Of a DNA stretch of 35,789 nt, positions 10,456-29,718 are shown piece after piece. This DNA is from Deltaproteobacteria bacterium. Lineage in GTDB: Bacteria > Myxococcota_A > Polyangia > JAAYKL01. Position numbers and translations under genes: made by a program. The stretch covers positions 1 through 35,789 of the forward strand of contig JAUVDV010000053.1 in the NCBI GenBank assembly GCA_030595125.1, given 5' to 3'. The notes under the pieces were generated by a model. It saw nothing but the letters and a program-made list of their open reading frames with translations, did no database searches and was not told where the DNA came from. Every line of letters begins with the position of its first letter. Position 1 is the first letter of the stretch.

Positions 10456-13065
10456 ATGGAAAAGAAATTAATACTATTCGTATGGCTTGCATTAACTATC
10501 GGGGTAATGCAGGTCGGTTGTGACGACGGTGACGGTGGTGACGGTGGTGACGATGTCGATGGCGGCACCGACACAGACGCCGACACAGACACAGACGCCG
10601 ACACGGACACCGACTCGGATACCGACTCGGATACCGACTCGGATACCGACTCGGACACGGACACCGATACCGTCCCATGTGTCGATCCGGTCGCCGGAGA
10701 TCCGACTGTCACATCGGCGCTCAGTTTGGCCGTTGTCATGGGAGTTACCAGTGACTCCTACACGCTGATCTTCTCAGAGGATGTATTTGGCGTTGACACT
10801 ACCAGCGTTACCTGGGCGACAACCACCGGTTCCGGAACCATCGACAGTATTACGGCTGTCGACGGCGCCAACTACACAGTGGCCTTCTCGGGAGTGGCGG
10901 ACGGTGATTCCTACACTCTCACGGTGGGCACTTCGGTGGAAGACACCTGCGGCAATACCCTTGCGGCTGCGGTGGATATTGGCATCGTCGGATTTGCTCC
11001 CTACTTCGTTGAGGATTTCGATGTCTTTACGGGAACCTATCCAGACACGCAGAACGGCTGGACTTCCAGTCCGACAACCGGCTACGCGTGGCAACTGGAC
11101 ACCGGCACAACTGGTTCCAGCAGCACGGGCCCCGACGGGGATCACACGGCGGGCACCGGTACGTATGTCTATACGGAAGCATCCAATGGAGTTACAGGCG
11201 ACACCACTATGTTGATCTCGCCCTCCATCGACCTCACCGGCGCCACAGCTCCTCAGATTGGGTTCTGGTACCACATGTACGGCTCGACCATCGACAACCT
11301 GGCCCTCGAAGTGGACGACGGCTCCGGATACACCAACGTCTGGACCATGGCCGGCGAGCAGCAAACGGATGACACCGATCCATGGCTTGAGGCAACTGTT
11401 GATCTCACCGCCTATGCCGGCAGCACCGTTACAATTCAGTTCGTGGGAACAAGGGGCACCAGCTACTACGGCGACATGGCCATCGACGACATTTTTATAA
11501 GTGAGCCGATGCCGCCTGTGGCGGAGTTTGCAGCCAACAACACACTTGTGATTCCCAATGATATTATGGACTTCACGGATCTATCGGGTAATGCTCCCAC
11601 AAGCTGGGCCTGGACCTTCACCGGCCCCGGCGTCGCAACATACGAGGGCGGCACCGCTGCCACCGATCAAGATCCACAGGTTTCATTCTCCGCTCCCGGC
11701 CTGTACACAGCGGAGCTGGTAGCTACGAACGTAGTCGGTAGCGACACGGAGACAAAAACAGAGTACGTCACGGTGCTCGACGCTTATTTCTATGAAGATT
11801 TCGAGACCATGACCGGCACCGGTGGAACCGCCGACGAGCCAAATGGCCAGAACGGATGGACCAGCTCGCCTCTCACGGGCTACGAGTGGCGCGTGGATAC
11901 CGGCACAACTCCTACCGGCAGCACAGGTCCGTCAGGCGATCACACCACGGGCTCGGGAATGTACGTGTACACGGAAGCCAGTAGTGGCGTTACGGGCGAT
12001 ACCACTTTGCTAACTTCAGCGTCCATCGACCTCACCGGCGCCACCGCACCTCAGGTAAGATTCTGGTACCACATGTACGGTTCAAACACCGACGACCTGG
12101 CTCTCGAGGTTGACGGCGGTTCGGGATACGCCGCCGTCTGGAACATGACCGGCGAACAGCAGACGGATGACACCGACCCCTGGACGCAGGCGTTTGTCGA
12201 TCTCACCGCCTATGCCGGCAGCACCGTTACAATCCAGTTCGTGGGAACACGAGGCGGCGGCTTATACGGCGACATGGCTGTCGACGATATCGTAGTCGGC
12301 GAGCCGGTTGCGCCGGCGGCAGACTTTGTCGCGAGCCCCACTGTGGCTCAGACGGGTGACCTTATCGCGCTGACGGATCTCTCCGTAGATGGACCCGCAA
12401 GCTGGCTCTGGACCATCACGGGACCTGGAACCGTGACTTATGAAAACGGCACGAGCGCAACCGACCAGCACCCGGAGATTTCGCTGGACACGGTCGGCCT
12501 GTACACTGTGGCTCTTGCGGCGACCAACGCCGTCGGTTCCGATACCGAGACCAAGACCGACTACATCCAGATATACGTTCCACTTTTCTTCGAAGATTTC
12601 GAGACATGGCCGCTAACCGGATGGACCATCGTCAATAATGGCGGAACCTGTGTATGGACTGACAACGTAACCGATGGTCGACCCAACTACGCCGGCGGAT
12701 CGGGTCTCGCCGCCTCCGCCGACAGCGACGACTGCGGCAGCGGTTCCACCATGGACACTGAATTGCAGACCCCGGTGCTCGATCTATCATCCCTGTCGAT
12801 AGCCTCGTTGGGCTTTGTGGCGGCATATAATGACTTTGGCGGTGGGGAGTACTTCGAGGTGATCATCTCGACGGATGGCGGCACCACCTGGGATCCGACG
12901 CCGCTCCTTTCGTGGGATGAAGATCATAGCGCATACGGCCCCGGCGAGTCGGTCCTGATCGACCTGACGCCTTTCGTAACCTCATCGACTATCGTCATCT
13001 CCTTTCACTACGTAGCTGACGGCTGGGATTGGTGGGGACAGGTCGATGACGTAATGGTCATGTAG
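10456..13065 (+). CDS. Large multidomain lipoprotein (Ig-like, MAM-like, PKD)
   Basis: An 869-residue surface lipoprotein with lipobox MQVGC (Cys22). A DTD/DSD linker (about 35-75) leads to an SbsA-type Ig-like domain (about 78-180) with FSEDV and EDTCGNTL. Two near-identical blocks follow, each a MAM/choice-of-anchor-J beta-sandwich (EDFxxxTGT, NGWTSSP, DLTAYAGSTVTIQFVGTRG, YGDMA-DDI) joined to a PKD domain (WxWTxTGPG, GLYT, NVVGSDTETKT). A third EDFE beta-sandwich closes the protein and ends QVDDVMVM. MAM/anchor-J and PKD domains bind carbohydrate or protein in secreted proteins; no catalytic residues are apparent. GGAGA precedes the ATG. The repeated blocks suggest internal duplication. 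Probably an adhesin or scaffold, by inference. Confidence 0.85.
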   Translation: MEKKLILFVWLALTIGVMQVGCDDGDGGDGGDDVDGGTDTDADTDTDADTDTDSDTDSDTDSDTDSDTDTDTVPCVDPVAGDPTVTSALSLAVVMGVTSDSYTLIFSEDVFGVDTTSVTWATTTGSGTIDSITAVDGANYTVAFSGVADGDSYTLTVGTSVEDTCGNTLAAAVDIGIVGFAPYFVEDFDVFTGTYPDTQNGWTSSPTTGYAWQLDTGTTGSSSTGPDGDHTAGTGTYVYTEASNGVTGDTTMLISPSIDLTGATAPQIGFWYHMYGSTIDNLALEVDDGSGYTNVWTMAGEQQTDDTDPWLEATVDLTAYAGSTVTIQFVGTRGTSYYGDMAIDDIFISEPMPPVAEFAANNTLVIPNDIMDFTDLSGNAPTSWAWTFTGPGVATYEGGTAATDQDPQVSFSAPGLYTAELVATNVVGSDTETKTEYVTVLDAYFYEDFETMTGTGGTADEPNGQNGWTSSPLTGYEWRVDTGTTPTGSTGPSGDHTTGSGMYVYTEASSGVTGDTTLLTSASIDLTGATAPQVRFWYHMYGSNTDDLALEVDGGSGYAAVWNMTGEQQTDDTDPWTQAFVDLTAYAGSTVTIQFVGTRGGGLYGDMAVDDIVVGEPVAPAADFVASPTVAQTGDLIALTDLSVDGPASWLWTITGPGTVTYENGTSATDQHPEISLDTVGLYTVALAATNAVGSDTETKTDYIQIYVPLFFEDFETWPLTGWTIVNNGGTCVWTDNVTDGRPNYAGGSGLAASADSDDCGSGSTMDTELQTPVLDLSSLSIASLGFVAAYNDFGGGEYFEVIISTDGGTTWDPTPLLSWDEDHSAYGPGESVLIDLTPFVTSSTIVISFHYVADGWDWWGQVDDVMVM
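10567..10674 (+). repeat. Asp-Thr/Asp-Ser codon repeat tract
   Basis: Repeated GAY-ACN/TCN/GCN units include four successive copies of GACTCGGATACC. They encode the linker of the 869-residue lipoprotein. Confidence 0.85.
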
Positions 13066-13123
13066 GTAAGACCGTCTGCGAATACCCTCCCCTGAATTCA
13101 CCTCTTCATGATATTGTTGGAAT

Positions 13124-14203
13124 ATGAAAATATTCAACAACACTCCTCTATTACACGCGGCGTACCTGACAGTTCTCTTGCTGGTCTGCGCGTGCGGTTC
13201 GGTGACGGACCCGGTCGGTTCGAGCAATCTGGACGGAGGAACCGACACAGATACCGACGGCGACACGGACTCCGATACGGACTCCGACACGGATTCCGAC
13301 TCCGATACTGATTCCGACACCGATTCCGACACGGATACGGACACCGACACGGATACGGACACCGGCCCGGTAACGGATGAATACATTTGCGACGACCTTG
13401 ACGATGATTCCGACAGCGAAATCGACGAGGGCTGCGACGACGACAGCGACGACTACTGCGACGAGAACATGGCCATCTCGGGAACCCCTCTGGAGTGTCC
13501 CAACGGAGGCCACGACTGCGATGACGCGAACCCGGACATCTACCCCGGGTCCACGACTCACCAGGAGGGTATCGACTACGACTGCGACGGGCTGAACGAG
13601 TACATGATGACCCTGGTCCTCTCCGTGGACGATGTCCTGGTGGATCTGTGCCTTAACGGGAACTTCGTCTCCACGCTGGGTGCCTACTCCAACCAGTGGC
13701 CGTACACGGACACCTATTACCTGGTAATGGAAACCGGCGACAACACCCTGGGCATCCACGGTCAAGATCTCGGCCTCGCCATCTCGGCGTTCATCGCCAC
13801 TGTCGAGGTTGACGGGCAGGAGTTTCGGTCCGACGGAGTGATGCCCCCTTCGAGCAGCATCCCGTACACGAGCGCGGATCCCGAATGGACCCAGACCGAG
13901 TGGCGCTACTTCCCGACACTGGCCACGGGTCCCGAGGTCAACTGGTGCCACCCGGTGTTCGACGACTCATCGTGGGGACCGGCCATCAGGTCGGGAATAG
14001 ACGGAACCACCCCGGTCTCCAACTGGGGATGGCTGGGCTACGCCCCGTGGAACTTCGGCTGCCCCACTGCGCCCAACTGCCCGGGGGATTTCTATTCGTA
14101 CTACACGGATTCCATCACCGACAACGAGCCCATGTGGATATGGGACTACAACCCCACCTCACTCGCGGACGCCTGGTTCCGCCTCAACGTCACGATCCCG
14201 TAG
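13124..14203 (+). CDS. DTD-linker lipoprotein with MopE-type metal-binding motif
   Basis: A 359-residue lipoprotein with lipobox VCAC (Cys24). The DTD/DSD linker spans about residues 38-80. An acidic Cys-rich region (about 88-155) follows, with DDDSDSEIDEGC, DDYCD, HDCDDANPDIYPGS and DYDCDG. This is the putative metal-binding motif found in MopE-like and thrombospondin type-3-like calcium-binding proteins. The C-terminal 200 residues hold several Trp-rich strands (WTQTEWRYF, SSWGPAIRSG, MWIWDY) and look like a galactose-binding-like sandwich; that fold call is tentative. The last 45 bases overlap the 3' end of the opposite-strand SctJ-like gene. Function unknown; probably surface exposed. Confidence 0.82.
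   Translation: MKIFNNTPLLHAAYLTVLLLVCACGSVTDPVGSSNLDGGTDTDTDGDTDSDTDSDTDSDSDTDSDTDSDTDTDTDTDTDTGPVTDEYICDDLDDDSDSEIDEGCDDDSDDYCDENMAISGTPLECPNGGHDCDDANPDIYPGSTTHQEGIDYDCDGLNEYMMTLVLSVDDVLVDLCLNGNFVSTLGAYSNQWPYTDTYYLVMETGDNTLGIHGQDLGLAISAFIATVEVDGQEFRSDGVMPPSSSIPYTSADPEWTQTEWRYFPTLATGPEVNWCHPVFDDSSWGPAIRSGIDGTTPVSNWGWLGYAPWNFGCPTAPNCPGDFYSYYTDSITDNEPMWIWDYNPTSLADAWFRLNVTIP
13240..13368 (+). repeat. Asp-Thr/Asp-Ser codon repeat tract
   Basis: About 20 six-base units (GAY plus ACN/TCN) encode the linker of the MopE-type lipoprotein. The complementary strand reads as a long Ser-Val ORF, which is not a gene. Confidence 0.85.
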
Positions 14204-14791
14204 CCTCCTCCACCTGCGCAGCTTGATCCCCGCGAAGATGAGCCCAATGGCCAGTAAAATGCACGCGCCGAGCAACGCTCCGATGATCGCCCGGGCTGCG
14301 CTCACGGACGAGGAGACGACCTCGATGGGACCGACGAACTCGGTTAGCGTGACCGGAACCTTATCCTGAGTAACGATAACCTTTACGTTACGGGGTTCGA
14401 GACCCTCGATGGCAGCGCAAGCCAGCTCAACGAGTTGCCGATCCAGGGACGGCGCCGGACCGTTTGTCCGCACGAGCACCGCGGCTGTCGCCTCGACCTC
14501 GCGATCCCGAGACAAGAGGCTCCGATCCGCCAGGGTGAGATGCACCCGCGCCGCCTTCACCCCTGGAATCTCCCTGATAGTTTCGCAGAGTTCACCCGCC
14601 AGGGCGTGCTCCCGCAGGAGTTTACCGTCATCGTGACCGGGAATGAGCGAGCCCGAAAGCAGCTCTTCCACCCCCGGTTGCATTCGCGCTACCGGTGGCT
14701 GATCGTCCTGCCCCACGCAACACGACGCGATCGCACACAGGAAAACCAGGACGATGGGCTCTATCGCCCGAAAGACGTCGGATGTTCGCAT
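14159..14791 (-). CDS. SctJ/FliF-like secretion-ring lipoprotein
   Basis: A 210-residue protein with a lipobox (IASC, Cys24), a soluble domain, one C-terminal membrane segment (about 164-188) and a basic tail. This layout is the one found in SctJ (YscJ/PrgK), the inner-membrane ring protein of type III secretion. The soluble part matches the second ring-building motif of SctJ/FliF: REHALAGELCETIREIPGVKAARVHL is covered by residues 60-85, followed by ATAAVLVR and GLEPRNVKVIV. The first ring-building domain seems to be missing. It lies three bases after the pseudokinase stop, so the two are co-transcribed. No other secretion or flagellar gene is in the window. Its 3' end overlaps the opposite-strand lipoprotein gene. 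Confidence 0.75.
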   Translation of the reverse strand: MRTSDVFRAIEPIVLVFLCAIASCCVGQDDQPPVARMQPGVEELLSGSLIPGHDDGKLLREHALAGELCETIREIPGVKAARVHLTLADRSLLSRDREVEATAAVLVRTNGPAPSLDRQLVELACAAIEGLEPRNVKVIVTQDKVPVTLTEFVGPIEVVSSSVSAARAIIGALLGACILLAIGLIFAGIKLRRWRRLRDRDVEAEPGVRE

Positions 14792-14794
14792 TTG

Positions 14795-16714
14795 TCAGTA
14801 GATCTCGAACCACCATGATGTCGCGGTTCGAGGAGAAGATGACGTGGGGAACTTGATGCCGCGCACCTTGGAAGCGACGCACTTCTTGAGTTTGGCGCTG
14901 CCCTGTTTAACCGAGGTGCCAATCACCCGTCCATTGCTACCCACGGCGATATTCATATCCACCCGGTTGGCAGATCCGTCCATGCACGGAATGAATCGCC
15001 GGACGTTACCATCCATCACCTGCTCGATCACCGCCGCGCTGAGCTGACGCTGGCCAGAGTTGTTGCCCAGGCTCCCCATCTCCACGCCCATGGCCATGGC
15101 CTCCTCGTATGTCATTCCATCGACAAAGTTGCCACTGCCGCCCTTCCCGCCCTTCCGTCGCTTGCCTTTTCCGCGCTTCTTTTTGCCGGACAGATCCCCA
15201 CCGGTTTTCAGCTTGATCTCTCCGCTATCCAGAGCGGCGATGAGATCGTCCTTGGAGAAAGTCTTCTCCTTGCGCAGACTCCTTGAGAGGAAGTAACCAC
15301 CCACTCCGAGGCCGATCACACCGATCACGATCAGGGTGACCATCACCTTGAAGGCAGTCCCGCGCTTCTCTGCCGTCTTCGTGCGCTGTAATGCGGCTTC
15401 CTCCTCCATCTTCTTTTTCTTGATTCTGTACTGCTCGAGATACTGATCGAATTCGCCCCACGCCTTTACCTTCTTGCGCACCCCGGTGTCCATGTTCAGC
15501 AGGTTGTGCTTGTAGAGCACCTCGCCCATCATGATCATCTGGATGAGTTCGCGATCGGTGAAAGGACCGTGATCGAACTTGTCCTTCTGGACCATCCAAC
15601 GAGCCGCCTCGCTCTTGCCGAGGTTTGAGAGCAACGCTCCCATGTCGATAGTCGACACACGATCGTCCGAACTCGGCGGATCCCCGTCCGTGCCAAGACC
15701 ACCGGACGGCGGCGCGGGCAACCCGGGCGCATTCACGAGCGAGCCGCCAGCCTTGCCTGTGGTGCCGGCTCCCTTCTTGTCGGTGAACGTGGGTACCGGC
15801 TCCTTGAACTTGGCCCCGGGCTCCACAACTCCCATGTCGCCGAGATCGATCTCCACATCGACTCCAAGATCGTCGTCGACGGCGCCGGCCACGTTCTTGG
15901 CGAGGAGATCCTCCTCCTCCTTGACCAGCGAGGAGACGGCATTCTTGACGGCGTCCGCGTTCTCGAAACGCTGCAACGGATCCGCTGCCATGCAGCGCGC
16001 CACCACCGTATCTACGTCTTTTGAAAACCCTACCTGGCTGGGAGCCTTCAGCGGGCGCTTGGGCGGCACACCGGTGATCAGCTCGTAAAAAAGCGCTCCG
16101 AGGGCATAGACATCCGACCGGGGAGTTGCCGCGGCGGGGTTCTTCAGCACCTCCGGCGCCCAGAAAACCCCCTCGACCTTCTTCCTGCCCGGATAGCTTT
16201 CCAGCCGGGTCCTAATGACCGACAGACCCCAATCGCTGATCTTTACGCGCCCCGCGTTGTTGACCATGATTGCTCGTGGGCTGAGCGCGCCGTGAAACGT
16301 TTTCTTGTGCGCGTAGGTGAGCGCGTTGCACACGTGACCGACAATGTTGTAAGCGCCCTTGAACGAGAACCGCTTGCCCTCTTGCGAACGCTTGGAAAGC
16401 AAAGACCTCAGGTTTTGGCCCTCTATCCACTCAGTGGCTATGAAAATGGTGCCGTCATCCTCAACGCCCATGCCGAAAGTCGCGCGAACATTGCGGTAGG
16501 TCAGAGTGGACGCTTCCTTTACCCGCATGCGAAGACGATCAACGTCGGCCTCGTTGGAAATCAGCTCACCGGGGATCACCCTGAGCGCTATTAGCTTTTT
16601 GTTTTTTACGTCGCGCGCCTTATAGACAAAACCCAGGTCGCCCTTGCCGACCAGTTCCTCGATCGAGAATCGTTCGCCTATCAGGGTATCTTTGACCAGA
16701 ATCTGTTGCTCCAT
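14795..16714 (-). CDS. Transmembrane pseudokinase with GYF_2-like and AgmX/TonB-like domains
   Basis: A 639-residue protein. Residues 16-262 have a PknB-type kinase fold: GKGDLGFVYKA loop, DWG at 161-163, APE at 186-188 and SDVYALG. The catalytic residues are lost, however. The VAIK lysine is Arg45, and the HRDxKxxN loop reads HGALSPRA (141-148), so the Asp, Lys and Asn are all replaced. A Pro/Gly linker leads to a GYF_2-like domain (372-415, W, HGPF, MMGEV) and a basic helix. One membrane segment (456-477), a Lys/Gly-rich stretch and a C-terminal domain (558-639) with two Cys (577, 612) and NGRVIGTSV follow; this last domain resembles the AgmX/PglI TonB-like domain. The AAGGTGG site precedes the ATG. 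Probably a cytoplasm-to-periplasm scaffold or sensor. Confidence 0.82.
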   Translation of the reverse strand: MEQQILVKDTLIGERFSIEELVGKGDLGFVYKARDVKNKKLIALRVIPGELISNEADVDRLRMRVKEASTLTYRNVRATFGMGVEDDGTIFIATEWIEGQNLRSLLSKRSQEGKRFSFKGAYNIVGHVCNALTYAHKKTFHGALSPRAIMVNNAGRVKISDWGLSVIRTRLESYPGRKKVEGVFWAPEVLKNPAAATPRSDVYALGALFYELITGVPPKRPLKAPSQVGFSKDVDTVVARCMAADPLQRFENADAVKNAVSSLVKEEEDLLAKNVAGAVDDDLGVDVEIDLGDMGVVEPGAKFKEPVPTFTDKKGAGTTGKAGGSLVNAPGLPAPPSGGLGTDGDPPSSDDRVSTIDMGALLSNLGKSEAARWMVQKDKFDHGPFTDRELIQMIMMGEVLYKHNLLNMDTGVRKKVKAWGEFDQYLEQYRIKKKKMEEEAALQRTKTAEKRGTAFKVMVTLIVIGVIGLGVGGYFLSRSLRKEKTFSKDDLIAALDSGEIKLKTGGDLSGKKKRGKGKRRKGGKGGSGNFVDGMTYEEAMAMGVEMGSLGNNSGQRQLSAAVIEQVMDGNVRRFIPCMDGSANRVDMNIAVGSNGRVIGTSVKQGSAKLKKCVASKVRGIKFPTSSSPRTATSWWFEIY

Positions 16715-16889
16715 CAGCCCACCTTGCCCGCAAGAAGAGGTAATTCTGAACTTTCAATTATTAGCCGAGACGGCTGTATCGTGCAACCTCGCACTTGGGA
16801 TCGAAAAAAATGGAGCTTTTTTCTCGGGATATGCATACAAAAGCACTACTCGCGTCTATCTGCATGAGAACGGGAAAGGAGCTACCCCG

Positions 16890-17534
16890 ATGAATTTGAC
16901 AAAATCAGTTCCGATATTCCTTGCCGTTGCGCTCGCTCTGGCACTCGTGACGAGCGATGCCTCGGCGGTCAATTTCACGCAAGTTGAAAAGGATAAGCTG
17001 TCTGCGGGCAAGACCGTCAAGAAACCCCTCCCCAAATCCGGAGAGAAGGGATTCTACGGCGGTACCGGGTACACGATCATCGACGCCCCCGTGGATGTCA
17101 TCTGGGCCGCTATCAATGACTGGAGCGCATATCCCAAAATTTTCCCGAAGACTGTTTCGGTGAAAGAACTTTCAAGGAAAGGCAACAAGTCGCTTGTTCA
17201 CCTGCAGATGGGCCACAAGCTCATCAGCGTGGAATACTACATGAGCATCAAGCGCGACATTGAGAAGCACGTCCTCTCCTTCTCGCTGGTCCCAAACCGG
17301 CCCAACGACATCGAAGAGTCACGCGGTTACTGGCGCCTCTTCCCCCAGAAGAACGGTCGTACGCTGGTGGCATACGTGGTGGCCACGCAGATTCCCATGG
17401 GGATCATCAACCTCATCAAGCCCGAGCTCGTGGCCAAAATTCAACGACACCTGCTGGGCGCGCCCAACGAAATTAAAAAGTGGGTAGAGGGGCCCAAGGG
17501 AGCCAAATATAGAACCATGACCGCGAAGAAGTAG
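16890..17534 (+). CDS. Secreted SRPBCC/START-like protein, copy 1
   Basis: A 214-residue protein with a signal peptide (1-23, ending SDASA). The mature part is an SRPBCC (polyketide cyclase/START-like) fold: the FYGGTGYTIIDAPVDVIWAAI segment, the W-S-A-Y-P-K-I-F-P helix, SVKEL and a GYWRLFP strand. SRPBCC domains have a deep hydrophobic pocket and bind lipids or other small hydrophobic ligands. The start at 16890 is chosen for AAAGGAG eight bases upstream; the open frame reaches back to 16644 without support. It is paralogous to the next gene, of identical length, and is followed by a clear terminator. It is divergent from the pseudokinase gene. Probably periplasmic; ligand unknown. Confidence 0.82.
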   Translation: MNLTKSVPIFLAVALALALVTSDASAVNFTQVEKDKLSAGKTVKKPLPKSGEKGFYGGTGYTIIDAPVDVIWAAINDWSAYPKIFPKTVSVKELSRKGNKSLVHLQMGHKLISVEYYMSIKRDIEKHVLSFSLVPNRPNDIEESRGYWRLFPQKNGRTLVAYVVATQIPMGIINLIKPELVAKIQRHLLGAPNEIKKWVEGPKGAKYRTMTAKK

Positions 17535-17561
17535 CTCCCTTCGCGTACGTGTTGTTCGATT

Positions 17562-17594
17562 GAGGGCGGGTCTTTTGGGCCCGCCCTTTTTTTT
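17562..17594 (+). terminator. Rho-independent terminator
   Basis: GGGCGGG pairs with CCCGCCC across a short loop and is followed directly by eight T. It lies 30 bases after the stop of SRPBCC copy 1, so the two paralogues are separate transcription units or the second is read at reduced level. Confidence 0.85.
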
Positions 17595-17706
17595 ATGGGG
17601 CCAAGATGGGGTTTTATTCAAAAAAAGAACACCAGCTCTTTTTTTTACATTTTTGATCTTCTCCATTCGTTTATCCAGATAGAGAAGAAAAAAAGGAGCT
17701 ACCACA

Positions 17707-18351
17707 ATGAAAACCATGGCAAAGACACTGCTGGTCATATTCGCTGTTGCCGGCGGCCTCATGGTCGCCAGTCAGGCCCGGGCGGTTTCCTTCACAAAAA
17801 AGGAAAAGAGTTCATTGGCCGCAGGCAAGACCGTCAAACAGCCCCTGGCCAGGTCGGGCGTGAACGGTTTCTACGGCGGGACGGGCTACACCGTCATCAA
17901 CGCGCCCATCGACGAGATCTGGGCGGCCATAGAAGACTGGAATGTGTACCGCAAGGTCTACCCCAACACCGTCTCGGTGAAGGAGGTATCCCGCAAGGGA
18001 AACCGGTCGCTGATCCGCATGGAGCAGGGACACAGGCTCCTCAGTGTTTCGTACTTCGTCGAGGTGGAGCGCGACACCGAGAAGAACATGCTCTCGTTCA
18101 ATCTGGTCAAGAACAAGCCGCACGATATCGATGAGACACGCGGCTACTGGCGGCTCTTTCCCCAGGCGGACGGAAGCACCCTGGTGGCCTACGCGGTTGC
18201 GGTTCAGGTCCCCAGAGGCATAGTCAGCATCCTCGGTTCGAGCCTGTCCAGGGCGCTCGAACGCGCCATCCTGGGAGTGCCGGGCTCCCTCAAAAAATGG
18301 ATGGAAGGACCGTCCGGCAACCGCTATCGCACCCTCACGGCCAGTAAATAG
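17707..18351 (+). CDS. Secreted SRPBCC/START-like protein, copy 2
   Basis: A 214-residue paralogue of the preceding gene. It has a signal peptide ending SQARA, then the same order of motifs: AGKTVK, FYGGTGYTVINAPIDEIWAAI region, SVKEVSRKGN, a GYWRLFPQ strand, and a KKWMEGP...YRTLTA end. Even the translation leader is conserved (AAAGGAGCTACC before both starts), so the duplication included the ribosome binding site. Sequence divergence is highest in the signal peptide and the ligand-facing C-terminal third (PRGIVSILGSS against PMGIINLIKPE). This suggests that the two copies bind different ligands; that is inference. The upstream 100 bases contain a T-rich stretch but no clear promoter. Confidence 0.82.
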   Translation: MKTMAKTLLVIFAVAGGLMVASQARAVSFTKKEKSSLAAGKTVKQPLARSGVNGFYGGTGYTVINAPIDEIWAAIEDWNVYRKVYPNTVSVKEVSRKGNRSLIRMEQGHRLLSVSYFVEVERDTEKNMLSFNLVKNKPHDIDETRGYWRLFPQADGSTLVAYAVAVQVPRGIVSILGSSLSRALERAILGVPGSLKKWMEGPSGNRYRTLTASK

Positions 18352-19039: not shown

Positions 19040-19783
19040 ATGATGAAACTTCTGCCAGACGGATACCAGAAGAAGGTAGGCAAGGCCGTCAGCCACTACT
19101 GGTACACTCTGTCTGCCCAGGCAGCCAAGCAATCTTCCAAAGACGCTGACAGGGGTAGAAGGGCGGCGGTTACCGGCGGGAAGCAGATGGATGGTTTCTG
19201 CGATCTCCTGCGGTGGCTTTTCATCAAAAACGGGCTAAAAGACGCCGATATTCACCTTTCGGGCAAGTCAGAGCTAACTATTCCCGGGTTCTTCCGGCCA
19301 ACAAAGCAGTGGGATATCCTTGTTGTTCATAACGCTTGTCTGGTGGCGGCGGTTGAGTTCAAATCCCAAAGGGGGCCGTCTTTCGGAAACAACTTCAACA
19401 ACCGGACAGAAGAAGCGCTCGGAACAGCAGAAGACTTATGGACGGCGTATCGTGAGGGAGCTTTCGGAGAAAAGAACCCGAAACCGTGGGCCGGCTGGCT
19501 GATGCTTCTTGAAGACTGCGATAAGTCGAAAGCCCCCGTTGGAGTCGCCGAGCGTCATTTTCCGGTAAGAAAAGAATTCAAGGAAACTTCCTACTCCAAG
19601 AGGTACGAACTTCTTCTCAGAAAACTGGTTCTCGAAAAGAAATACGATGCCGCTGCTTTCATCATGGCAACACAAAACGAAGGAATAGCGGGCAAATACT
19701 CAGAACCAGCCGATGATCTTTCTATGAAGAAGTTTTTGGCGAGCCTTGCCGGACATATTCGCACATATATTGAGGGGCTCTAG
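19040..19783 (+). CDS. XhoI/PaeR7I-type type II restriction endonuclease
   Basis: A 247-residue endonuclease of the PaeR7I/XhoI family, which cuts CTCGAG. The family core is visible: GKQMDGF (47-53), PGFFRPTKQWDILVV (82-96), and a PD-(D/E)XK site made of Asp92 and Glu106-Phe-Lys108, followed by SFGNNFNNRTEEALGTA (114-130). Length is close to that of PaeR7I as remembered. The specificity is inferred from family membership. GAGG precedes both possible starts (19040 and 19043); the second has better spacing. The gene is visibly lower in GC than its neighbours (for example 25 of 60 bases at 19561-19620), which points to horizontal transfer. The methyltransferase begins two bases after its stop. 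Confidence 0.9.
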   Translation: MMKLLPDGYQKKVGKAVSHYWYTLSAQAAKQSSKDADRGRRAAVTGGKQMDGFCDLLRWLFIKNGLKDADIHLSGKSELTIPGFFRPTKQWDILVVHNACLVAAVEFKSQRGPSFGNNFNNRTEEALGTAEDLWTAYREGAFGEKNPKPWAGWLMLLEDCDKSKAPVGVAERHFPVRKEFKETSYSKRYELLLRKLVLEKKYDAAAFIMATQNEGIAGKYSEPADDLSMKKFLASLAGHIRTYIEGL

Positions 19784-19785
19784 AC

Positions 19786-21483
19786 ATGGCTTCTCAGCTC
19801 TCAATCGGCCTGCCTGTATCGCTACCGCAAGAAGCGTATAGCTACGGCGAGAGATCATCCGGTGAGACCCACGGTGTTGTTCTCACAAAACGCCATGTCG
19901 TAGATTTGATATTGGACCTTTCCGGTTACCAGGTGGAAAAAGATCTTTCCCGGTTTTCTCTGCTTGAACCTTCCTGTGGTGAGGGCGCTTTCCTGCTGCC
20001 TGCAGTTGAAAGGCTCCTCGCGTCAATCGAGACCCACAACCGGAATGCAGAAGAACTGAAAGACCGATTTCTTGCCTTCGATATTGATCCCGACCACGTG
20101 AAAACCACTCGCAGCAAGGTCTCTGAGCTGCTCATGAAGCACGGTTTCTCAGTTGTTGAGGCGGATAATTTGGCTTCTCGATGGGTTGTTGAGGGCGATT
20201 TCTTGCTTTCGGATATCCGTCAAACCTTCGATTTCATCGTCGGCAATCCGCCTTACATCAGGATTGAACAGTTGGGCCCAGCACTACAGGCTGAATACAG
20301 ATCCAGATTTGTGTCTCTGTTTGATCGAGCAGATCTGTATGTTGCCTTTATCGAGCGCGGCCTAGACCTCATTTCCGACACAGGAAGGCTTACCTATATT
20401 TGCGCCGACCGTTGGATTCTAAACAAGTATGGTGCGCCACTCAGAAACAAGATAGCCAACGGGTTCAAGGTCCACAGCTACGTTGACCTGCACGACGCCT
20501 CACCATTTGACGCGGAGGTTATTGCCTACCCTTCCATTTTCTCCATCGGACGAGGCATATCAAAAGATGTCAAAGTGGCTGCTTTGAAGACCGCCTCGGA
20601 GGAAGAGTGCACGCAAGCGGCCAAGTTGCTTATCAAGACTGGGAAGAGGAAATCGGAAATAGAGGTTCACACCTACCATGACTGGTTTGCTGGAAATGCC
20701 CCCTGGGTTCTCAGCTCACCGAAGCACCTCTCGGTTCTTCGAGAACTCGAGTCGAAATTTTCTCCTATTGAGGCGGACGGGCAAACAAAAATCGGTATTG
20801 GTGTGGCCTCGGGAAACGACAAGCTCTTCATCGTCGGCGGTGATACCGGCATTGAGAAAAAACGATTGGTTCCCCTGGTCAAGCGAGAAGACATCACCGA
20901 AGGGAAAATCAAAGACGCCAGGCGCTATGTGATAAATACGTTCGAGGATTCACAGGGGACAATTTCTCTAGAACGCTACCCCAAGTTGAAAGCCTATTTT
21001 CATAGACACGAAGAGCTGATCCGGAAACGCCACGTCGCAAAGAAGAACCCGAACAGCTGGTTTCGAACGATTGACAGGGTTTATCCCGAACTCGTAAAAA
21101 AACCGAAATTGCTCATTCCCGATATAGCCGGATCAAACGAAGTCGCTTTTGATAAAGGCAGATTTCATCCTCACCACAACCTCTACTACATCACCTCTGA
21201 CACGTGGGATCTGGAAGTTCTCGGCGGTCTTCTCAGCTCAGAAGTGGCTCTGTTTTTCATCTGGTCTTACGCCGTAAAAATGAGGGGGGGGTACCTACGT
21301 TTTCAGGCGCAGTACCTACGAAGGATTCGCATTCCGCGCCCCAGCGACATTGCCACTGCTTTGCAAAAAGAGATTAGGCAGGCTTTTCGAAACCGCGATT
21401 TCAAATCGTTAGATCTGCTTGCTCTTCAAACCTACGGCTTGGAGGAACTTCCCTGTTTCGATTTTGTTGATACCAGGGATTAG
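19786..21483 (+). CDS. Adenine-N6 DNA methyltransferase of the XhoI/PaeR7I-type system
   Basis: A 565-residue gamma-class N6-adenine methyltransferase. The SAM-binding motif EPSCGEGAF (61-69) and the catalytic NPPY (154-157) are present in the expected order, and the C-terminal half carries a target-recognition region with the YITSDTWDLEVLGGLLSS segment (around 465-485). It would methylate CTCGAG and protect the host from the adjacent endonuclease. GAGGGG lies eight bases before the ATG, inside the end of the endonuclease gene. The unit is ordered restriction gene first, then modification gene, with no controller gene seen. Codon use is AT-richer than in the surroundings, as in its partner. 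Confidence 0.9.
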   Translation: MASQLSIGLPVSLPQEAYSYGERSSGETHGVVLTKRHVVDLILDLSGYQVEKDLSRFSLLEPSCGEGAFLLPAVERLLASIETHNRNAEELKDRFLAFDIDPDHVKTTRSKVSELLMKHGFSVVEADNLASRWVVEGDFLLSDIRQTFDFIVGNPPYIRIEQLGPALQAEYRSRFVSLFDRADLYVAFIERGLDLISDTGRLTYICADRWILNKYGAPLRNKIANGFKVHSYVDLHDASPFDAEVIAYPSIFSIGRGISKDVKVAALKTASEEECTQAAKLLIKTGKRKSEIEVHTYHDWFAGNAPWVLSSPKHLSVLRELESKFSPIEADGQTKIGIGVASGNDKLFIVGGDTGIEKKRLVPLVKREDITEGKIKDARRYVINTFEDSQGTISLERYPKLKAYFHRHEELIRKRHVAKKNPNSWFRTIDRVYPELVKKPKLLIPDIAGSNEVAFDKGRFHPHHNLYYITSDTWDLEVLGGLLSSEVALFFIWSYAVKMRGGYLRFQAQYLRRIRIPRPSDIATALQKEIRQAFRNRDFKSLDLLALQTYGLEELPCFDFVDTRD

Positions 21484-23629: not shown

Positions 23630-24946
23630 TCACGAAGTCGATGAGGGGCAGCCGAAGGTGGCTGTAATATCGGTGACGTTGCCGTCCTTGATGTCCTGAC
23701 AGGTTGTGGGACAGAACTCCACCTCGGTCTGTGCCGGGGTCGTCCATCTCCAACCTATGCCCACTCCCGGAGGAGTCTGATTACAGTCGGAGTTGTACGG
23801 CACGAGTATGCCGTCAAAATAGAAATTCACCTCGTCTGGATCGTAGTCCGGAGTCGAGGGCGGAGGCACCGGGTAGATGCATGGCACAACGTCGTTGACG
23901 ATACTCTGAAGCGCGGTTTCGAGCTGGGCTGCATTGTCAGCGGTGAAATATCCCGCCGGCGGGTAGCTCGGATATCCGCCATTGTTTGCGATGGCCAGAA
24001 GAGTGGTCGTGGAGACCCCGCTCCCAAAGCCCACCATTATTGTAGTGACTCCGAGGACACTGGACAGGGTCGCGGCCATGTTACCCAGCTGAATGTCGCT
24101 GTACGTGCCGCATCCGTAGTCGTCACCGTCGGCGATGAGCACCAGATAAGAGTTGGGGTTGACGGCCGTGTTGAGGAAAACAGGAGCATACATTGTATTG
24201 ATGAACTGGTTCATCGACAGATATAGCGGCGTGAGACCGTTTGGAGCAGACATTCCGTTTATGAAGTTGTAGATATTGGTCGCATGGGTTGGGCCCCAGG
24301 CGCAGTCCGTCTGCACACTCATGGCCATTCCGCAGTCTCCGCTGCGGGGGAAATAGTCAAATCCGAAATCGACGAGTCCGGACGGCAACGAGCCGGCCAC
24401 AAGAATCTGATACAGGGCGTTCTTGGCCGATGTCCACTTGGTTCCAGCCATGGATCCGGAGTAATCGAGCAGGATCATCAACTTGACGTGATCGATGGTC
24501 AGGGGCAGATCGGTCTCGCCGCAGGTGATGTCCGTATCCGGCGGACCCTCGTCGGTCTCCGTATCGCAGTCCTGGTTGATGCCGTCGCCTTCCGAGTCTA
24601 TGGCGCCGGGATGGATGGTGGAGTCGCTGTCATTACAATCGAACGGCAGGCACCACCAGTCGCTGTCGTTGTCGACGCAACCGGGACCGGCGTCCATGTC
24701 CGTATCGGTGTCGCTGTCCGTATCGCTGTCAGTGTCCGAATCAGTATCAGAGTCGGTATCTGAATCAGTATCAGAGTCGGTGTCGCTGTCCGTATCGTTG
24801 TCGGTATCCGTGTCGATATCGGTATCGGTGTCAGTGTCGGTATCGGCGCCCGAATCGAGAAGAAAGCTTGAACTGCTTCCATCTTCACACGCGATCAGAC
24901 TGATCGCGAGAAAGGGAATAATGATAACAAACCCCGGTTTTCCCAT
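23630..24946 (-). CDS. VWA lipoprotein with DTD linker and metal-binding motif, copy 2
   Basis: A 438-residue lipoprotein (lipobox LIAC, Cys20). A DTD/DSD linker (about 32-88) is followed by a MopE-type acidic motif ([28 protein letters not shown]) and a VWA domain with MIDAS residues DYSGSM, a Thr in GLTPLY and the Asp in IADGDD. The final 85 residues form a Cys module (NFYFDG, VPYNSDC, GWRW, EFC, TFGC). It is a tandem paralogue of the next gene upstream. The start has GGGAGG seven bases before it, and 15 bases separate it from the preceding stop. VWA proteins of this form bind ligands at the cell surface; the ligand is unknown. Confidence 0.88.
   Translation of the reverse strand: MGKPGFVIIIPFLAISLIACEDGSSSSFLLDSGADTDTDTDTDIDTDTDNDTDSDTDSDTDSDTDSDTDSDTDSDTDSDTDTDMDAGPGCVDNDSDWWCLPFDCNDSDSTIHPGAIDSEGDGINQDCDTETDEGPPDTDITCGETDLPLTIDHVKLMILLDYSGSMAGTKWTSAKNALYQILVAGSLPSGLVDFGFDYFPRSGDCGMAMSVQTDCAWGPTHATNIYNFINGMSAPNGLTPLYLSMNQFINTMYAPVFLNTAVNPNSYLVLIADGDDYGCGTYSDIQLGNMAATLSSVLGVTTIMVGFGSGVSTTTLLAIANNGGYPSYPPAGYFTADNAAQLETALQSIVNDVVPCIYPVPPPSTPDYDPDEVNFYFDGILVPYNSDCNQTPPGVGIGWRWTTPAQTEVEFCPTTCQDIKDGNVTDITATFGCPSSTS
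24682..24784 (-). repeat. 103-base tract identical to 26026-26128
   Basis: The linker-coding part and its left border match the paralogous gene base for base over 103 bases, while flanking coding sequence differs at several positions. This indicates recent gene conversion or unequal exchange between the two VWA genes. Confidence 0.85.
24699..24849 (-). repeat. Asp-Thr/Asp-Ser codon repeat tract
   Basis: About 25 six-base units encode the linker of VWA copy 2. The left part belongs to the 103-base identical tract. Confidence 0.85.
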
Positions 24947-24961
24947 CGATCCTCCCGATGG

Positions 24962-26308
24962 TTACGAAGTCGAGGAGGGGCAACCAAATGTGGCGGTAAT
25001 ATCGGTGACGAGGCCGTCCTTGATATCCTGGCATGTGATGGAGCAGAACTCCACCTCGTCCTGGAGTACGGTCGTCCATCTCCAGCCTACGTTCACTCCC
25101 GGAGGCGTCTGGTTGCAGTCGGAGTTCCACGGCACGAGCACGCCGTCGAAATAGAAATTAACCTCGTCGGGATCGTAGTCCGGACTCGACGGCGGCGGCA
25201 CCGGGTAGGTGCACGGCACGATGTCGGCTACGATGTCCTCTATGGCGTCCTCGAACTCGGTCGCGTTCTCTGCGGTGAAATATCCCGCCGGCGGGTAACC
25301 CGTATATCCACCGTTGCTGGCGATTGCCAGAAGAGTGCTCGTCGAGACCCCGGTTCCGAAACCCACCATGATGGTGGTGACCCCGATGGAGTTCAGGCTG
25401 GCCGCCAGGGCGCCGAGCTGAGCCGATGAGTGCCCACCACACGATGAGTGATCGTCGCCGTCTGCCACCAGCACCAGATAGGCGTTGGGGTTGGCTGCCA
25501 CGTTGAGGAACACAGGAGCATAAAAGGAGTTGAGGAACTTGGCCATCGCCAGATACAGGGGAGTGAGATTGGTGCCGGCGGGTGTGGACAGTCCGTTGAT
25601 CGCCGTGGCGATGCTCGAGGCGTGGGCGGCGCCCGGCAAGCAGTCCATGAATACCGAGGAATGAAGAACACAACCCGTGCCGATGGGGAAGTACTCGAAG
25701 CCGAAGTCGACAAGTCCTCCCGCCAGAGAACCGGTGAGCACAGAGTTGAGCGCGGTCTTGGCCGAAAGCCACTTGTTTGGTGTTCCGCTGTTCATGGATC
25801 CGGAGTAGTCGAGCAGGATCATCAGCTTGGCGTGATCGATGGTAATGGGCAGATCGCTTTCGCCGCAGGTGATGTCCGTATCCGGAGGACCTTCGTCAGT
25901 CTCCGTATCGCAGTCCTGGTTGATGCCGTCGGATTCCCAGTCTATGGCACCGGGGTGGATGGTGGAGTCGCTGTCATTACAGTCGAACGGCAGGCACCAC
26001 CAGTCGCTGTCATTGTCGATACAATCGGGACCGGCGTCCATGTCCGTATCGGTGTCGCTGTCCGTATCGCTGTCAGTGTCCGAATCAGTATCAGAGTCGG
26101 TATCTGAATCAGTATCAGAGTCGGTGTCCGAATCACTGTCGGAATCGCTGTCCGAATCCGAATCACTGTCGGAATCCGTATCGCCGTCGGTGTCCGCGTC
26201 GGTATCGGTACCTGAATCGAAGACCAGGCTTGATCCGCCTCCGTCCTCACACGCGATCAGGCAGACCGCAAGAAAGGTTACAATGATTGCAAATCCTGGT
26301 TTTTTCAT
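24962..26308 (-). CDS. VWA lipoprotein with DTD linker and metal-binding motif, copy 1
   Basis: A 448-residue paralogue of the following gene, with the same order of parts: lipobox LIAC (Cys20), DTD/DSD linker (about 32-90), MopE-type acidic motif, VWA domain (DYSGSM, a Thr in NLTPLY, VADGDD) and the C-terminal Cys module (NFYFDG, VPWNSDC, GWRW, EFC, TFGC). The ATG at 26308 is chosen because GGGAGG lies seven bases upstream and the signal peptide then matches that of the paralogue. An open frame runs to 26365 but lacks such support. This is the first gene of the tandem pair and faces a 287-base AT-rich gap. Confidence 0.88.
26026..26128 (-). repeat. 103-base tract identical to 24682-24784
   Basis: Second member of the identical pair described at 24682. 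Outside it the two genes differ, for example in the number and order of Asp-Ser units to its right. Confidence 0.85.
26040..26214 (-). repeat. Asp-Thr/Asp-Ser codon repeat tract
   Basis: About 29 six-base units encode the linker of VWA copy 1. It is the longest such tract in the window and has an Asp-Ser-rich right half absent from copy 2. Confidence 0.85.
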
Positions 26309-26421
26309 GATTCCTCCCGAATAAATCATCGCCGACAACCCCTTGCCGAGATAAAACTCAGCCATGCAAACAACCCACGTTCATCAGCTTAGTTGTCAAG
26401 TCATTAGTTTTTTTCCATATA

Positions 26422-26595: not shown

Positions 26596-27906
26596 ATGGC
26601 CGAAACACATGCAGGAGATAATGTTCATTTCTGGGCGGCGACAGACGTCGGTCGGGTCCGCGATCACAACGAAGACAACTTCCTGGTGGACAAGGGGCTG
26701 AACCTGTTCGTGGTGGCTGACGGGATGGGCGGTCATGCTGCCGGGGAAGTCGCCTCGAGCATTGCGGTCAACCAGATGAGAGACGTGGTTCGCCAGAACA
26801 AGGACTTGCTGGACTCGTACAAGGAAGGCTCCCAGATAGCGTCCACACGCGATGTCCTGAGCCTCCTGGAACACGCAGTGCAAAAAGCCTGCGTGGAGAT
26901 CCACGATCTCGCCGAAAAGGAAACCGAAAAGCGGGGAATGGGAACAACTCTGTCAGGCCTCCTGATCATCGGCAACAAGGGGTTCATTGCCCACGTGGGA
27001 GACAGCCGGATCTACCTCCTTCGCGGGGGCCGAGTGGTGCAACTGACCGAGGATCACTCCCTGGTCAACGAGCTCATCAAGCGCGGAAAACTGGCCGCGT
27101 CCGAAGCCGAGAGCTCTCCGTATAAAAACGCCGTCACCCGCGCCGTAGGCGTGTACGAGAGCGTTGAAGCGGACACCATGGATTTCGATGTGTTGCCGGG
27201 CGATCTGTTTCTGCTCGCCTCTGACGGACTCACCGGCTACCTGAAAAACGAAGAGATCGAGCCGGTTGTAGAGGGTGCGGATGACCTCAAGGAAATCCCT
27301 GGGGCCTTCATCGATATGGCCAACGAGCGCGGGGGTAAGGACAACATCACCAGCATCGTCGTCCGTCTCGAAGACGCCGAAGGAAAGGCCTCCGAACTCA
27401 ACAAGGAAATAGAACTGAAGATCGAAACCATTCGGCGAATGCCGATCTTCAAGTTCCTGACCTACAATGAACTCGTCCTGATAATGAACATCACCACCGT
27501 CAATGATATCGGCCCCAACGAACAGATCATCGCGGAAGGTGACGAGGGTGAAGATCTCTTCATCGTGCTGAAGGGAAACGTCAAGGTGCACAAGGGCGAA
27601 ACCGAGATCGTGACCCTTCGCGACGGCGACCACTTCGGAGAGATGGCGCTAATCGACAAGGCGCCGCGCTCGGCTAGTGTAACCGCCCTCACCGACACCA
27701 AGCTCCTTCAAATCGGCCGGACAAACTTCTTCGAGATCATCCGAAAAAAACCCAGGCTCGCCACCAAGCTCCTGTGGAGTTTCCTGCAGGTTATCTCCGA
27801 TCGTCTTCGCACCACCAACCGCGAGCTCTCCGGCGTCAGAGCAGACACCATCGTGGACCTCACCGAGGAGTTGTTCGAGATCGAAGTGAATGTGGATGAT
27901 GACTAA
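26596..27906 (+). CDS. PP2C-type Ser/Thr phosphatase fused to a cyclic-nucleotide-binding domain
   Basis: A 436-residue cytoplasmic protein. Residues 9-262 are a PP2C phosphatase with the metal-binding motifs TDVGRVRDHNEDN (16-28), ADGMGGH (41-47), HVGDSR, LASDGLTGYL and GGKDNITSIV. Residues 290-420 are a cNMP-binding domain of the CRP/PKA-R type (IIAEGDEGEDLFIVLKG is covered near 310-326, FGEMALIDKAPRSASV near 348-363). PP2C enzymes dephosphorylate the targets of PknB-type kinases; the second domain may gate activity with cyclic nucleotide. The GEMAL and RSA elements of the phosphate-binding cassette are present. GGGAGGG precedes the ATG. It is convergent with mepA, with overlapping stop codons. 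Confidence 0.9.
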   Translation: MAETHAGDNVHFWAATDVGRVRDHNEDNFLVDKGLNLFVVADGMGGHAAGEVASSIAVNQMRDVVRQNKDLLDSYKEGSQIASTRDVLSLLEHAVQKACVEIHDLAEKETEKRGMGTTLSGLLIIGNKGFIAHVGDSRIYLLRGGRVVQLTEDHSLVNELIKRGKLAASEAESSPYKNAVTRAVGVYESVEADTMDFDVLPGDLFLLASDGLTGYLKNEEIEPVVEGADDLKEIPGAFIDMANERGGKDNITSIVVRLEDAEGKASELNKEIELKIETIRRMPIFKFLTYNELVLIMNITTVNDIGPNEQIIAEGDEGEDLFIVLKGNVKVHKGETEIVTLRDGDHFGEMALIDKAPRSASVTALTDTKLLQIGRTNFFEIIRKKPRLATKLLWSFLQVISDRLRTTNRELSGVRADTIVDLTEELFEIEVNVDDD

Positions 27907-28721
27907 TCCAGGGCCAGGGCCATGAGTTCTTTGGTTGTCCACCGCTTGCCATGCTCGCCCTTTTCAATCCACGGCCACACTGGTCCCAGGTCCTTGCAGC
28001 GGGCGCCGGCGGCGCCATCCGGACAATAGATTCTCACATGAAAATGATCGTCGTGAGGCGCCGAATCCCCGGGCTGATGCAGGATCGACGCGGCCCTGCG
28101 AATGATTTCGATGTCTCTTTCGTGATTGAGCGCCCACTCCAGCAAGATCGCCTTCAACCCGTGGCTCACGAATATCCATTGAACGCGGCTCTCCTCATCG
28201 GCGATGAGGGCCTCCACCACCATCCAGTTTCTCTGTGCATCGAACCGGCAGACCGTCTCTTCCCTGAGGCCTGCGCCGAAACGATCGAATCGCGTGAGGG
28301 GCCACCCGTGAATCGGCTTCCCCGACGGAGAGGTAACGAAGAACGCCAGATCCACATCCCGCCCGCTGCGATGGGAGTGATGCTCGCTGATGAATCCCCC
28401 ACCCTGCCCGCTCAGATCTCCCAGGAGAAGCACCGTTCCGGGAAACTCGCGATCCAACGTTTTGGATACCCTCTGCACGAGTCCCGTCAGCTCCCGAATC
28501 CCGTAGCGTCGATCTCGCGCGCGATAAAAACGAAAATGCTCCCCTCTTTTCGCAAGATGCTCACCGCCCAGGAGGAGCCCTCGGGATGCAGTCCCCAGAG
28601 ATCCGGTCTCGCCACCATTCACCACGCCGGCCCACGGAAGACACCCTGCGATCGACGTGGACGCGAGGTAGACAAAAATCGACAGGAACCCGGCCGTCCT
28701 TCTGAAATCCGCTGTGATCAC
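27903..28721 (-). CDS. mepA: Penicillin-insensitive murein endopeptidase MepA-like
   Basis: A 272-residue zinc peptidase of family M74 that cleaves the D-Ala-mDAP cross-links of peptidoglycan in the periplasm. The signature GGEHLAKRG, RRYGIREL and LLLGDLSGQGGG lead to the zinc motif EHHSHRSGRDVDL (113-125), and HDDHFHVRIYC provides the later histidine ligand. The N-terminus has a hydrophobic segment with a lipobox-like IAGC (Cys27), so this may be lipid-anchored, unlike E. coli MepA. Translation starts at GTG 28721, overlapping the stop of the kinase gene by four bases (GTGA). Its stop overlaps that of the PP2C gene on the other strand. Confidence 0.88.
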   Translation of the reverse strand: MITADFRRTAGFLSIFVYLASTSIAGCLPWAGVVNGGETGSLGTASRGLLLGGEHLAKRGEHFRFYRARDRRYGIRELTGLVQRVSKTLDREFPGTVLLLGDLSGQGGGFISEHHSHRSGRDVDLAFFVTSPSGKPIHGWPLTRFDRFGAGLREETVCRFDAQRNWMVVEALIADEESRVQWIFVSHGLKAILLEWALNHERDIEIIRRAASILHQPGDSAPHDDHFHVRIYCPDGAAGARCKDLGPVWPWIEKGEHGKRWTTKELMALALD

Positions 28722-29653: not shown

Positions 29654-29718
29654 GGCATGCGTTCCGAACGTTGCAAAACTAACGTGGCATTGAGGGTAGC
29701 ACATTCGACCGTTTTCGC

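What the first reader, a model, noticed from the sequence alone, without database searches (positions are those of the whole stretch)
14159..16714. Pseudokinase coupled to a lone SctJ/FliF-like ring lipoprotein
Seen: a 639-residue transmembrane protein with a kinase fold lacking the VAIK Lys (Arg45) and all of the HRDxKxxN loop (HGALSPRA), followed by GYF_2-like, membrane and AgmX/TonB-like periplasmic domains. Three bases after its stop begins a 210-residue protein with lipobox, one SctJ/FliF ring-building domain and a C-terminal membrane segment. Known: SctJ/FliF proteins form 24- to 34-mer rings in type III secretion or flagella, always with many partner genes; none is here. Inference: the pair may form a new envelope-spanning assembly in which the pseudokinase is the cytoplasmic sensor or scaffold and the ring protein a simplified basal ring without the first ring-building domain. 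This is the best candidate for an undescribed system in the window.
Basis: partly seen in the sequence, partly recalled or inferred. Interest (0 to 1): 0.8.

Follow-up and report, generated by a model that had tools for sequence, protein, structure and literature searches.

The report
Pseudokinase–SctJ pair of scattered T3SS
The ring protein and inactive kinase are a deeply conserved two-gene unit of myxobacteria, and the missing secretion-machine parts are not absent but scattered one by one over the rest of the genome, so this is most likely a reduced, needle-less-type type III secretion machine with an unusual membrane adaptor rather than a new ring system.

Summary
In detail: a 639-residue pseudokinase–GYF–TM–TonB-like-tail protein and, 3 bp downstream, a 210-residue SctJ with one ring-building domain (YscJ_FliF 1.9e-13; fold match EscJ Z 14.2, 0.9 Å). 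The pair is a real unit: SctJ lies directly downstream in 17 of 18 informative Myxococcota loci, and Arg45 (replacing the VAIK Lys) is invariant in 18 orthologues. The central inference ("no partner genes, new assembly") fails. The same genome lacks FliF but carries single SctR, S, T, U, V, N and Q genes on six other contigs; its SctV falls with the non-flagellar proteins (100/100 split from FlhA). Only one YscJ_FliF protein exists, the one in the window. It is therefore most simply the SctJ of a scattered T3SS akin to the Myxococcus needle-less T3SS*. Unusual: dispersal across a whole class; in this family SctJ has lost ring domain 1 and SctU its autocleavage domain; SctJ is repeatedly encoded beside AgmX/GltJ-tail membrane proteins, and SctS/T with a GltJ-like one. 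Best model: the pseudokinase protein is the inner-membrane adaptor of the SctJ ring. Against strict coupling: one relative without any T3SS keeps the pseudokinase.

The parts
14795..16714 (-). 639-aa pseudokinase–GYF-like–TM–TonB/AgmX-like-tail protein (P0001)
   Evidence: orthologues next to SctJ
15896..16684 (-). pseudokinase domain, residues 11-273; Arg45 for VAIK Lys, HGALSPRA for HRD loop, DWG for DFG
15455..15604 (-). GYF_2-like domain, residues about 371-420 (DHGPF motif invariant)
   Evidence: (weak in homologues)
15284..15358 (-). transmembrane helix, residues about 453-477
   Evidence: sequence read directly (hydrophobic stretch); part of a long helix plus low-confidence stretch in the model
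14798..15043 (-). periplasmic TonB/AgmX-like tail, residues about 558-639
   Evidence: NF033768 E 0.002, secondary structure order
14159..14791 (-). 210-aa SctJ-type inner-membrane ring lipoprotein lacking ring-building domain 1 (P0002)
14717..14791 (-). signal peptide with plausible lipobox IASC (Cys24)
   Evidence: sequence read directly
14360..14638 (-). ring-building domain 2, residues 52-144
   Evidence: EscJ Z 14.2, rmsd 0.9 A, 81 residues
14222..14305 (-). C-terminal transmembrane helix, residues about 163-190
17707..18351 (+). divergently encoded exported START/polyketide-cyclase-like protein, conserved neighbour of the pseudokinase in the family (role unknown)
   Evidence: Pfam Polyketide_cyc 3.4e-7; homologue upstream of the pseudokinase in 8 family loci

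Best explanation
The pair is the inner-membrane ring/adaptor module of a reduced non-flagellar type III export machine whose other genes are scattered over the genome. SctJ, lipid-anchored and crossing the inner membrane once, oligomerises through its second ring-building domain around the SctRSTUV export gate. The upstream protein sits in the same membrane: its cytoplasmic pseudokinase and GYF-like domain act as a non-catalytic docking platform (for cytoplasmic T3SS parts or signalling proteins), and its periplasmic TonB-like tail reaches outward, perhaps standing in for the missing SctD/secretin side of the machine. Shown: homology, conserved pairing, scattered T3SS set, loss of kinase residues. 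Inferred: ring formation, docking, contact between the two proteins, any role in predation.
For: SctJ identity by profile, structure and phylogenetic context. One YscJ_FliF protein and no FliF in the genome. SctV, SctR(+FliO-like), SctU, SctS/SctT, SctN and SctQ single-copy on contigs C80, C120, C43, C50, C26 and C168, all over 8 kb from a contig end, SctJ on C145. SctV tree: non-flagellar and FlhA proteins split 100/100; relatives with a flagellum hold both. A relative lacking all eight searched T3SS families (G008) lacks SctJ too. Pair order in 17/18 loci. AgmX/GltJ-type tails within two genes of SctJ: 12/111 genes against 10/905 elsewhere, most of the latter in SctS/T operons; NCBIfam finds the tail domain (E 4e-4 or better, three over the curated cut-off) in nine of ten such neighbours tested and in the SctS/T neighbour. 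Purifying selection: dN/dS 0.34 (SctJ), 0.11 (pseudokinase). Precedent for secretin-less myxobacterial NF-T3SS and for scattered NF-T3SS: PMC3459982, PMC10433427, PMC12075869.
Against: G008 keeps the pseudokinase orthologue (55-58% identity) although all searched T3SS parts and SctJ are gone, so the protein has a use without them. The kinase domain is eroded in family f11 and absent in f17. In several families SctJ has other neighbours, and lineages f7/f12 have SctV without a detected SctJ. No interaction or ring was modelled; no canonical SctD was found, but that search had no positive control. Tail similarity of P0001 itself is sub-threshold. The tail model was trained on several of the neighbours, so the enrichment figure is optimistic.
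Confidence: 0.6

Rival explanations
1. The pair is a T3SS-independent assembly: a simplified SctJ ring plus a pseudokinase sensor, exapted from the T3SS and working alone.
For: Pair adjacency is stronger than any linkage to other T3SS genes; SctJ lost ring domain 1 in this family; stand-alone ring-building proteins exist (SpoIIIAG matches the model, Z 9.5).
Against: A single-copy export core is present in the same genome with no other SctJ to serve it, and SctJ is lost where that core is lost (G008).
Confidence: 0.12
2. Relic: a decaying T3SS whose parts were dispersed and are being lost; the pair is left-over.
For: SctJ without ring domain 1, SctU without the NPxH autocleavage domain, shortened SctV, lipobox not evident in some family members.
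Against: Intact ORFs across many genera, dN/dS 0.34 and 0.11, the same truncations shared by the whole family, components retained in nearly every member.
Confidence: 0.12
3. Co-transcribed but not physically linked: the pseudokinase protein belongs to another envelope system (Agl-Glt/TonB-like) and merely shares an operon with sctJ.
For: Pseudokinase protein kept without T3SS in G008; its tail and GYF-like part resemble GltJ-type proteins of the gliding machinery (compare); conserved divergent START-like neighbour that does not depend on SctJ.
Against: The order persists across the class, and other AgmX/GltJ-tail proteins recur next to SctJ or SctS/T in different arrangements, which points to function rather than hitch-hiking.
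Confidence: 0.16

Closest known systems
Needle-less T3SS* of Myxococcus xanthus / 'Myxo' NF-T3SS (PMC3459982, PMC10433427, PMC12075869)
   Same: non-flagellar export core with ATPase and SctJ, myxobacterial host; no T3SS secretin or needle is among the parts found here
   Different: there the genes form a cluster (mxan_2434-2464) that includes SctD; here each gene or gene pair stands alone, SctJ lacks ring domain 1, SctU lacks its cytoplasmic domain
Scattered NF-T3SS of Chlamydiales (PMC3459982)
   Same: a T3SS encoded in several loci
   Different: Chlamydial systems have a secretin and at least four loci, several with more than one core gene
SctJ (EscJ, PrgK) and FliF
   Same: ring-building domain 2, lipobox (SctJ), C-terminal TM
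   Different: 210 aa, no ring-building domain 1, no FliF ring domain 3
GltJ/AgmX and GltG/PglI of the Agl-Glt gliding machinery (PMC3169522)
   Same: single-pass inner-membrane proteins with a cytoplasmic regulatory domain (Zn-ribbon/GYF or FHA) and a TonB-like periplasmic tail
   Different: cytoplasmic head is a pseudokinase; gene is in line with sctJ, not with gliding genes

Membership tests
SctJ (T3SS inner-membrane ring lipoprotein) | YscJ_FliF profile over its curated cut-off | tested here: met
   51.1 vs 24.4 bits; the equivalog TIGR02544 is below its own cut-off (29.3 vs 162 bits)
SctJ (T3SS inner-membrane ring lipoprotein) | two ring-building domains | tested here: not met
   only domain 2 here and in the whole family; both in other families of the class
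SctJ (T3SS inner-membrane ring lipoprotein) | lipobox and C-terminal TM segment | tested here: met
   sequence and model; lipobox not evident in some family members
SctJ (T3SS inner-membrane ring lipoprotein) | forms a ring around the export gate | not testable with these tools
   no oligomer prediction available
FliF (flagellar MS ring) | about 550 aa with three ring-building domains, in a flagellated genome | tested here: not met
   210 aa; no FliF and only the non-flagellar-type SctV in the genome
Non-flagellar T3SS | SctR, S, T, U, V, N, Q and J present in the genome | tested here: met
Non-flagellar T3SS | genes clustered (usual, not universal) | tested here: not met
   seven contigs, each gene over 8 kb from a contig end; SctV and SctJ about 190 kb apart on one contig in G079
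Non-flagellar T3SS | SctD present | tested here: inconclusive
   Yop-YscD_ppl_1st found in none of 29 genomes nor in the controls
Non-flagellar T3SS | secretin and needle subunit | not tested
   genome searches exhausted; Myxo systems are known to lack them (PMC3459982)
Protein pseudokinase | kinase fold with loss of catalytic Lys and Asp | tested here: met
   ATP binding itself not testable
GltJ/AgmX-type proteins | AgmX/PglI C-terminal domain NF033768 over its cut-off | tested here: not met
   E 0.002, 18.2 vs 40 bits; met by the GltJ-like protein in the SctS/T operon (55.7 bits)

The most novel reading that the evidence does not exclude
In these Myxococcota the T3SS export core has been rebuilt around TonB/AgmX-tailed membrane proteins: a pseudokinase-headed one replaces SctD as the outer partner of the SctJ ring and a GltJ-like one accompanies SctS/T, giving a secretion machine that borrows envelope-coupling parts of the gliding/TonB type instead of a secretin and is steered by kinase-fold domains.
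Probability: 0.3. Interest if true: 0.82.

Novelty: new variant of a known kind. Interest (0 to 1): 0.6.

Why it matters
How the needle-less T3SS* of predatory myxobacteria connects to the outer membrane is open (PMC12075869). A class-wide, gene-by-gene scattered T3SS in which SctJ and SctS/T are repeatedly paired with TonB/AgmX-tail proteins names concrete candidates for that connection. It also shows that a non-flagellar T3SS can persist without a gene cluster, and that detection methods which rely on gene clusters will miss such systems.

Tried and rejected
Lone ring protein: rejected after searching the genome for export genes. Flagellar remnant: rejected, no FliF, SctV on the non-flagellar side of the tree, NCBIfam yscR/hrcV/SctN models score above the flagellar ones (but SctS, SctT and SctU scores lean slightly to the flagellar models, and a FliO-like gene sits before SctR). 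Contig fragmentation as the cause of scatter: rejected, genes lie well inside contigs and the scatter repeats in relatives. Chance adjacency: rejected (17/18). A catalytic kinase: rejected by invariant Arg45 and lost HRD loop. SctD search gave nothing and had no positive control. SctI-like proteins beside SctJ in other families: suggestive only (PF17001 E 0.005 at best). Whole-model Foldseek of P0001 is filled by kinases and says nothing about the tail. Literature searches found no description of this pair or of a scattered T3SS in this class; the held library lacks most subscription papers.

Full report
What is there. On the minus strand the window encodes P0001 (16714..14795, 639 aa) and, 3 bp on, P0002 (14791..14159, 210 aa). 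P0001 has a kinase domain (9.7e-26) with Arg45 in place of the VAIK lysine, HGALSPRA in place of the HRD loop and DWG for DFG; a GYF-like domain, one TM helix and a TonB/AgmX-like tail follow. P0002 matches YscJ_FliF at 1.9e-13, but only the second half of the profile; the AlphaFold model (mean pLDDT 82) superposes residues 52-144 on EscJ with Z 14.2 and 0.9 A over 81 residues.

The pair is real. In the same family the order pseudokinase then SctJ recurs in all genomes where both are assembled. A scan of one genome per species found 19 loci, all from MAGs filed as Deltaproteobacteria or Myxococcota, some as Sandaracinaceae or Polyangiaceae. Where downstream DNA is held, SctJ follows in 17 of 18 (in three loci my gene caller missed the gene and it was read by hand). 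Arg45 is invariant in 18 sequences. Between two species of the genus dN/dS is 0.34 for SctJ and 0.11 for the pseudokinase.

It is not alone in its genome. P0002 is the only YscJ_FliF protein of the genome; there is no FliF. But the genome has one SctV (C80), one SctR with a FliO-like gene (C120), one SctU (C43), SctS and SctT side by side (C50), one SctN (C26) and one SctQ-type protein (C168) (all but SctQ re-checked). NCBIfam scores favour the non-flagellar models for SctR (190 vs 162 bits), SctV (483 vs 468) and marginally SctN (476 vs 473); SctS, SctT and SctU lean to the flagellar models. A SctV/FlhA tree separates the two kinds with 100/100 support, and flagellated relatives hold both. 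All these genes lie over 8 kb inside their contigs. The scatter is found in other families too; in G079 SctV and SctJ are about 190 kb apart on one contig.

Co-occurrence. G008 (88% complete) has none of the eight searched T3SS families; its pseudokinase orthologue is followed by an unrelated lipoprotein. G033 and G041 likewise lack SctV, SctR and SctJ. Conversely most genomes with SctJ have SctV and SctR. Exceptions: families f7 and f12 have SctV without a detected non-flagellar SctJ.

What is peculiar. In the window's family nearly all SctJ start at profile position 72-88, i.e. lack ring-building domain 1 (one fragment at a contig end in G011 is unclear), whereas other families mostly match from position 7-13. 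The family's SctU proteins found are 230-241 aa without NPxH. SctJ neighbours in other families include GYF-TM-tail proteins related to the C-terminal half of P0001 (f5, f11, f14, f17; one with no kinase domain) and other AgmX/GltJ-tail proteins. SctS/T in the window's genome follow a Zn-ribbon–GYF–TM–AgmX-tail protein (NF033768 4e-15; partial GltJ match 2e-31). The SctQ-type gene stands divergent to a kinase with intact catalytic motifs in several family members.

Mechanism. Shown: homology, conserved pairing, loss of catalytic residues, presence of a dispersed export core. Inferred: SctJ rings the export gate; P0001 is a non-catalytic platform whose cytoplasmic head gathers partners and whose tail extends toward the outer membrane. 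The architecture head–TM–TonB-like tail parallels GltJ and GltG of the gliding machinery (PMC3169522). By analogy with Myxococcus (PMC12075869, PMC10433427) the machine may serve contact-dependent prey lysis; nothing here tests that.

Limits. No complex was modelled. The tail call on P0001 is below its curated cut-off. Gene calls in relatives come from a simple in-house caller and can misplace starts. The tail enrichment (12/111 vs 10/905) used a model trained partly on the same proteins; one search is the independent check. The class identity (Polyangia-like) is inferred from the titles of related MAGs, not from a placement of this genome.

Verdict. It deserves attention for the dispersal, the domain losses and the recurrent pairing with tail proteins.

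Noticed in passing
G000:C50, L123:9332-13344: SctS and SctT lie in an apparent operon with a GltJ-like Zn-ribbon/GYF/TM/AgmX-tail protein and an MshEN–receiver–TPR protein; the tail protein recurs in the SctS/T loci of relatives.
   Followed up: partly
G000:C168:6300-8700 (L155) and relatives (L156-L163): The SctQ-type gene is divergent to a Ser/Thr kinase with intact VAIK, HRD and DFG motifs in several genomes of the family; a possible active partner for the pseudokinase.
   Followed up: partly
window 16644-18351: Two tandem exported START/polyketide-cyclase-like proteins divergent to the pseudokinase; one is conserved there in 8 family loci, including the relative without T3SS.
   Followed up: partly
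L085:9417-10109 (G000:C43): SctU of this family lacks the cytoplasmic NPxH autocleavage domain; a short SctU is also seen in G055 (L097).
   Followed up: partly
window 26596-27906: PP2C phosphatase fused to a cyclic-nucleotide-binding domain, near a kinase gene with intact motifs (28718-29740, minus).
   Followed up: no
window 19040-21483: Adjacent 247-aa and 565-aa genes that look like a restriction endonuclease and an N6-adenine methylase pair (read from sequence only).
   Followed up: no
window 14159-14203: The 3' end of sctJ overlaps by 45 bp the convergent gene for an acidic-repeat lipoprotein with a MopE-type copper motif; the overlap is kept in the sister species (L044).
   Followed up: partly
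window 10456-14203 and 23630-26365: Several lipoproteins carry long DTDTDSDTD acidic repeats after the signal peptide; the same kind of protein is seen at other loci of this genome.
   Followed up: no
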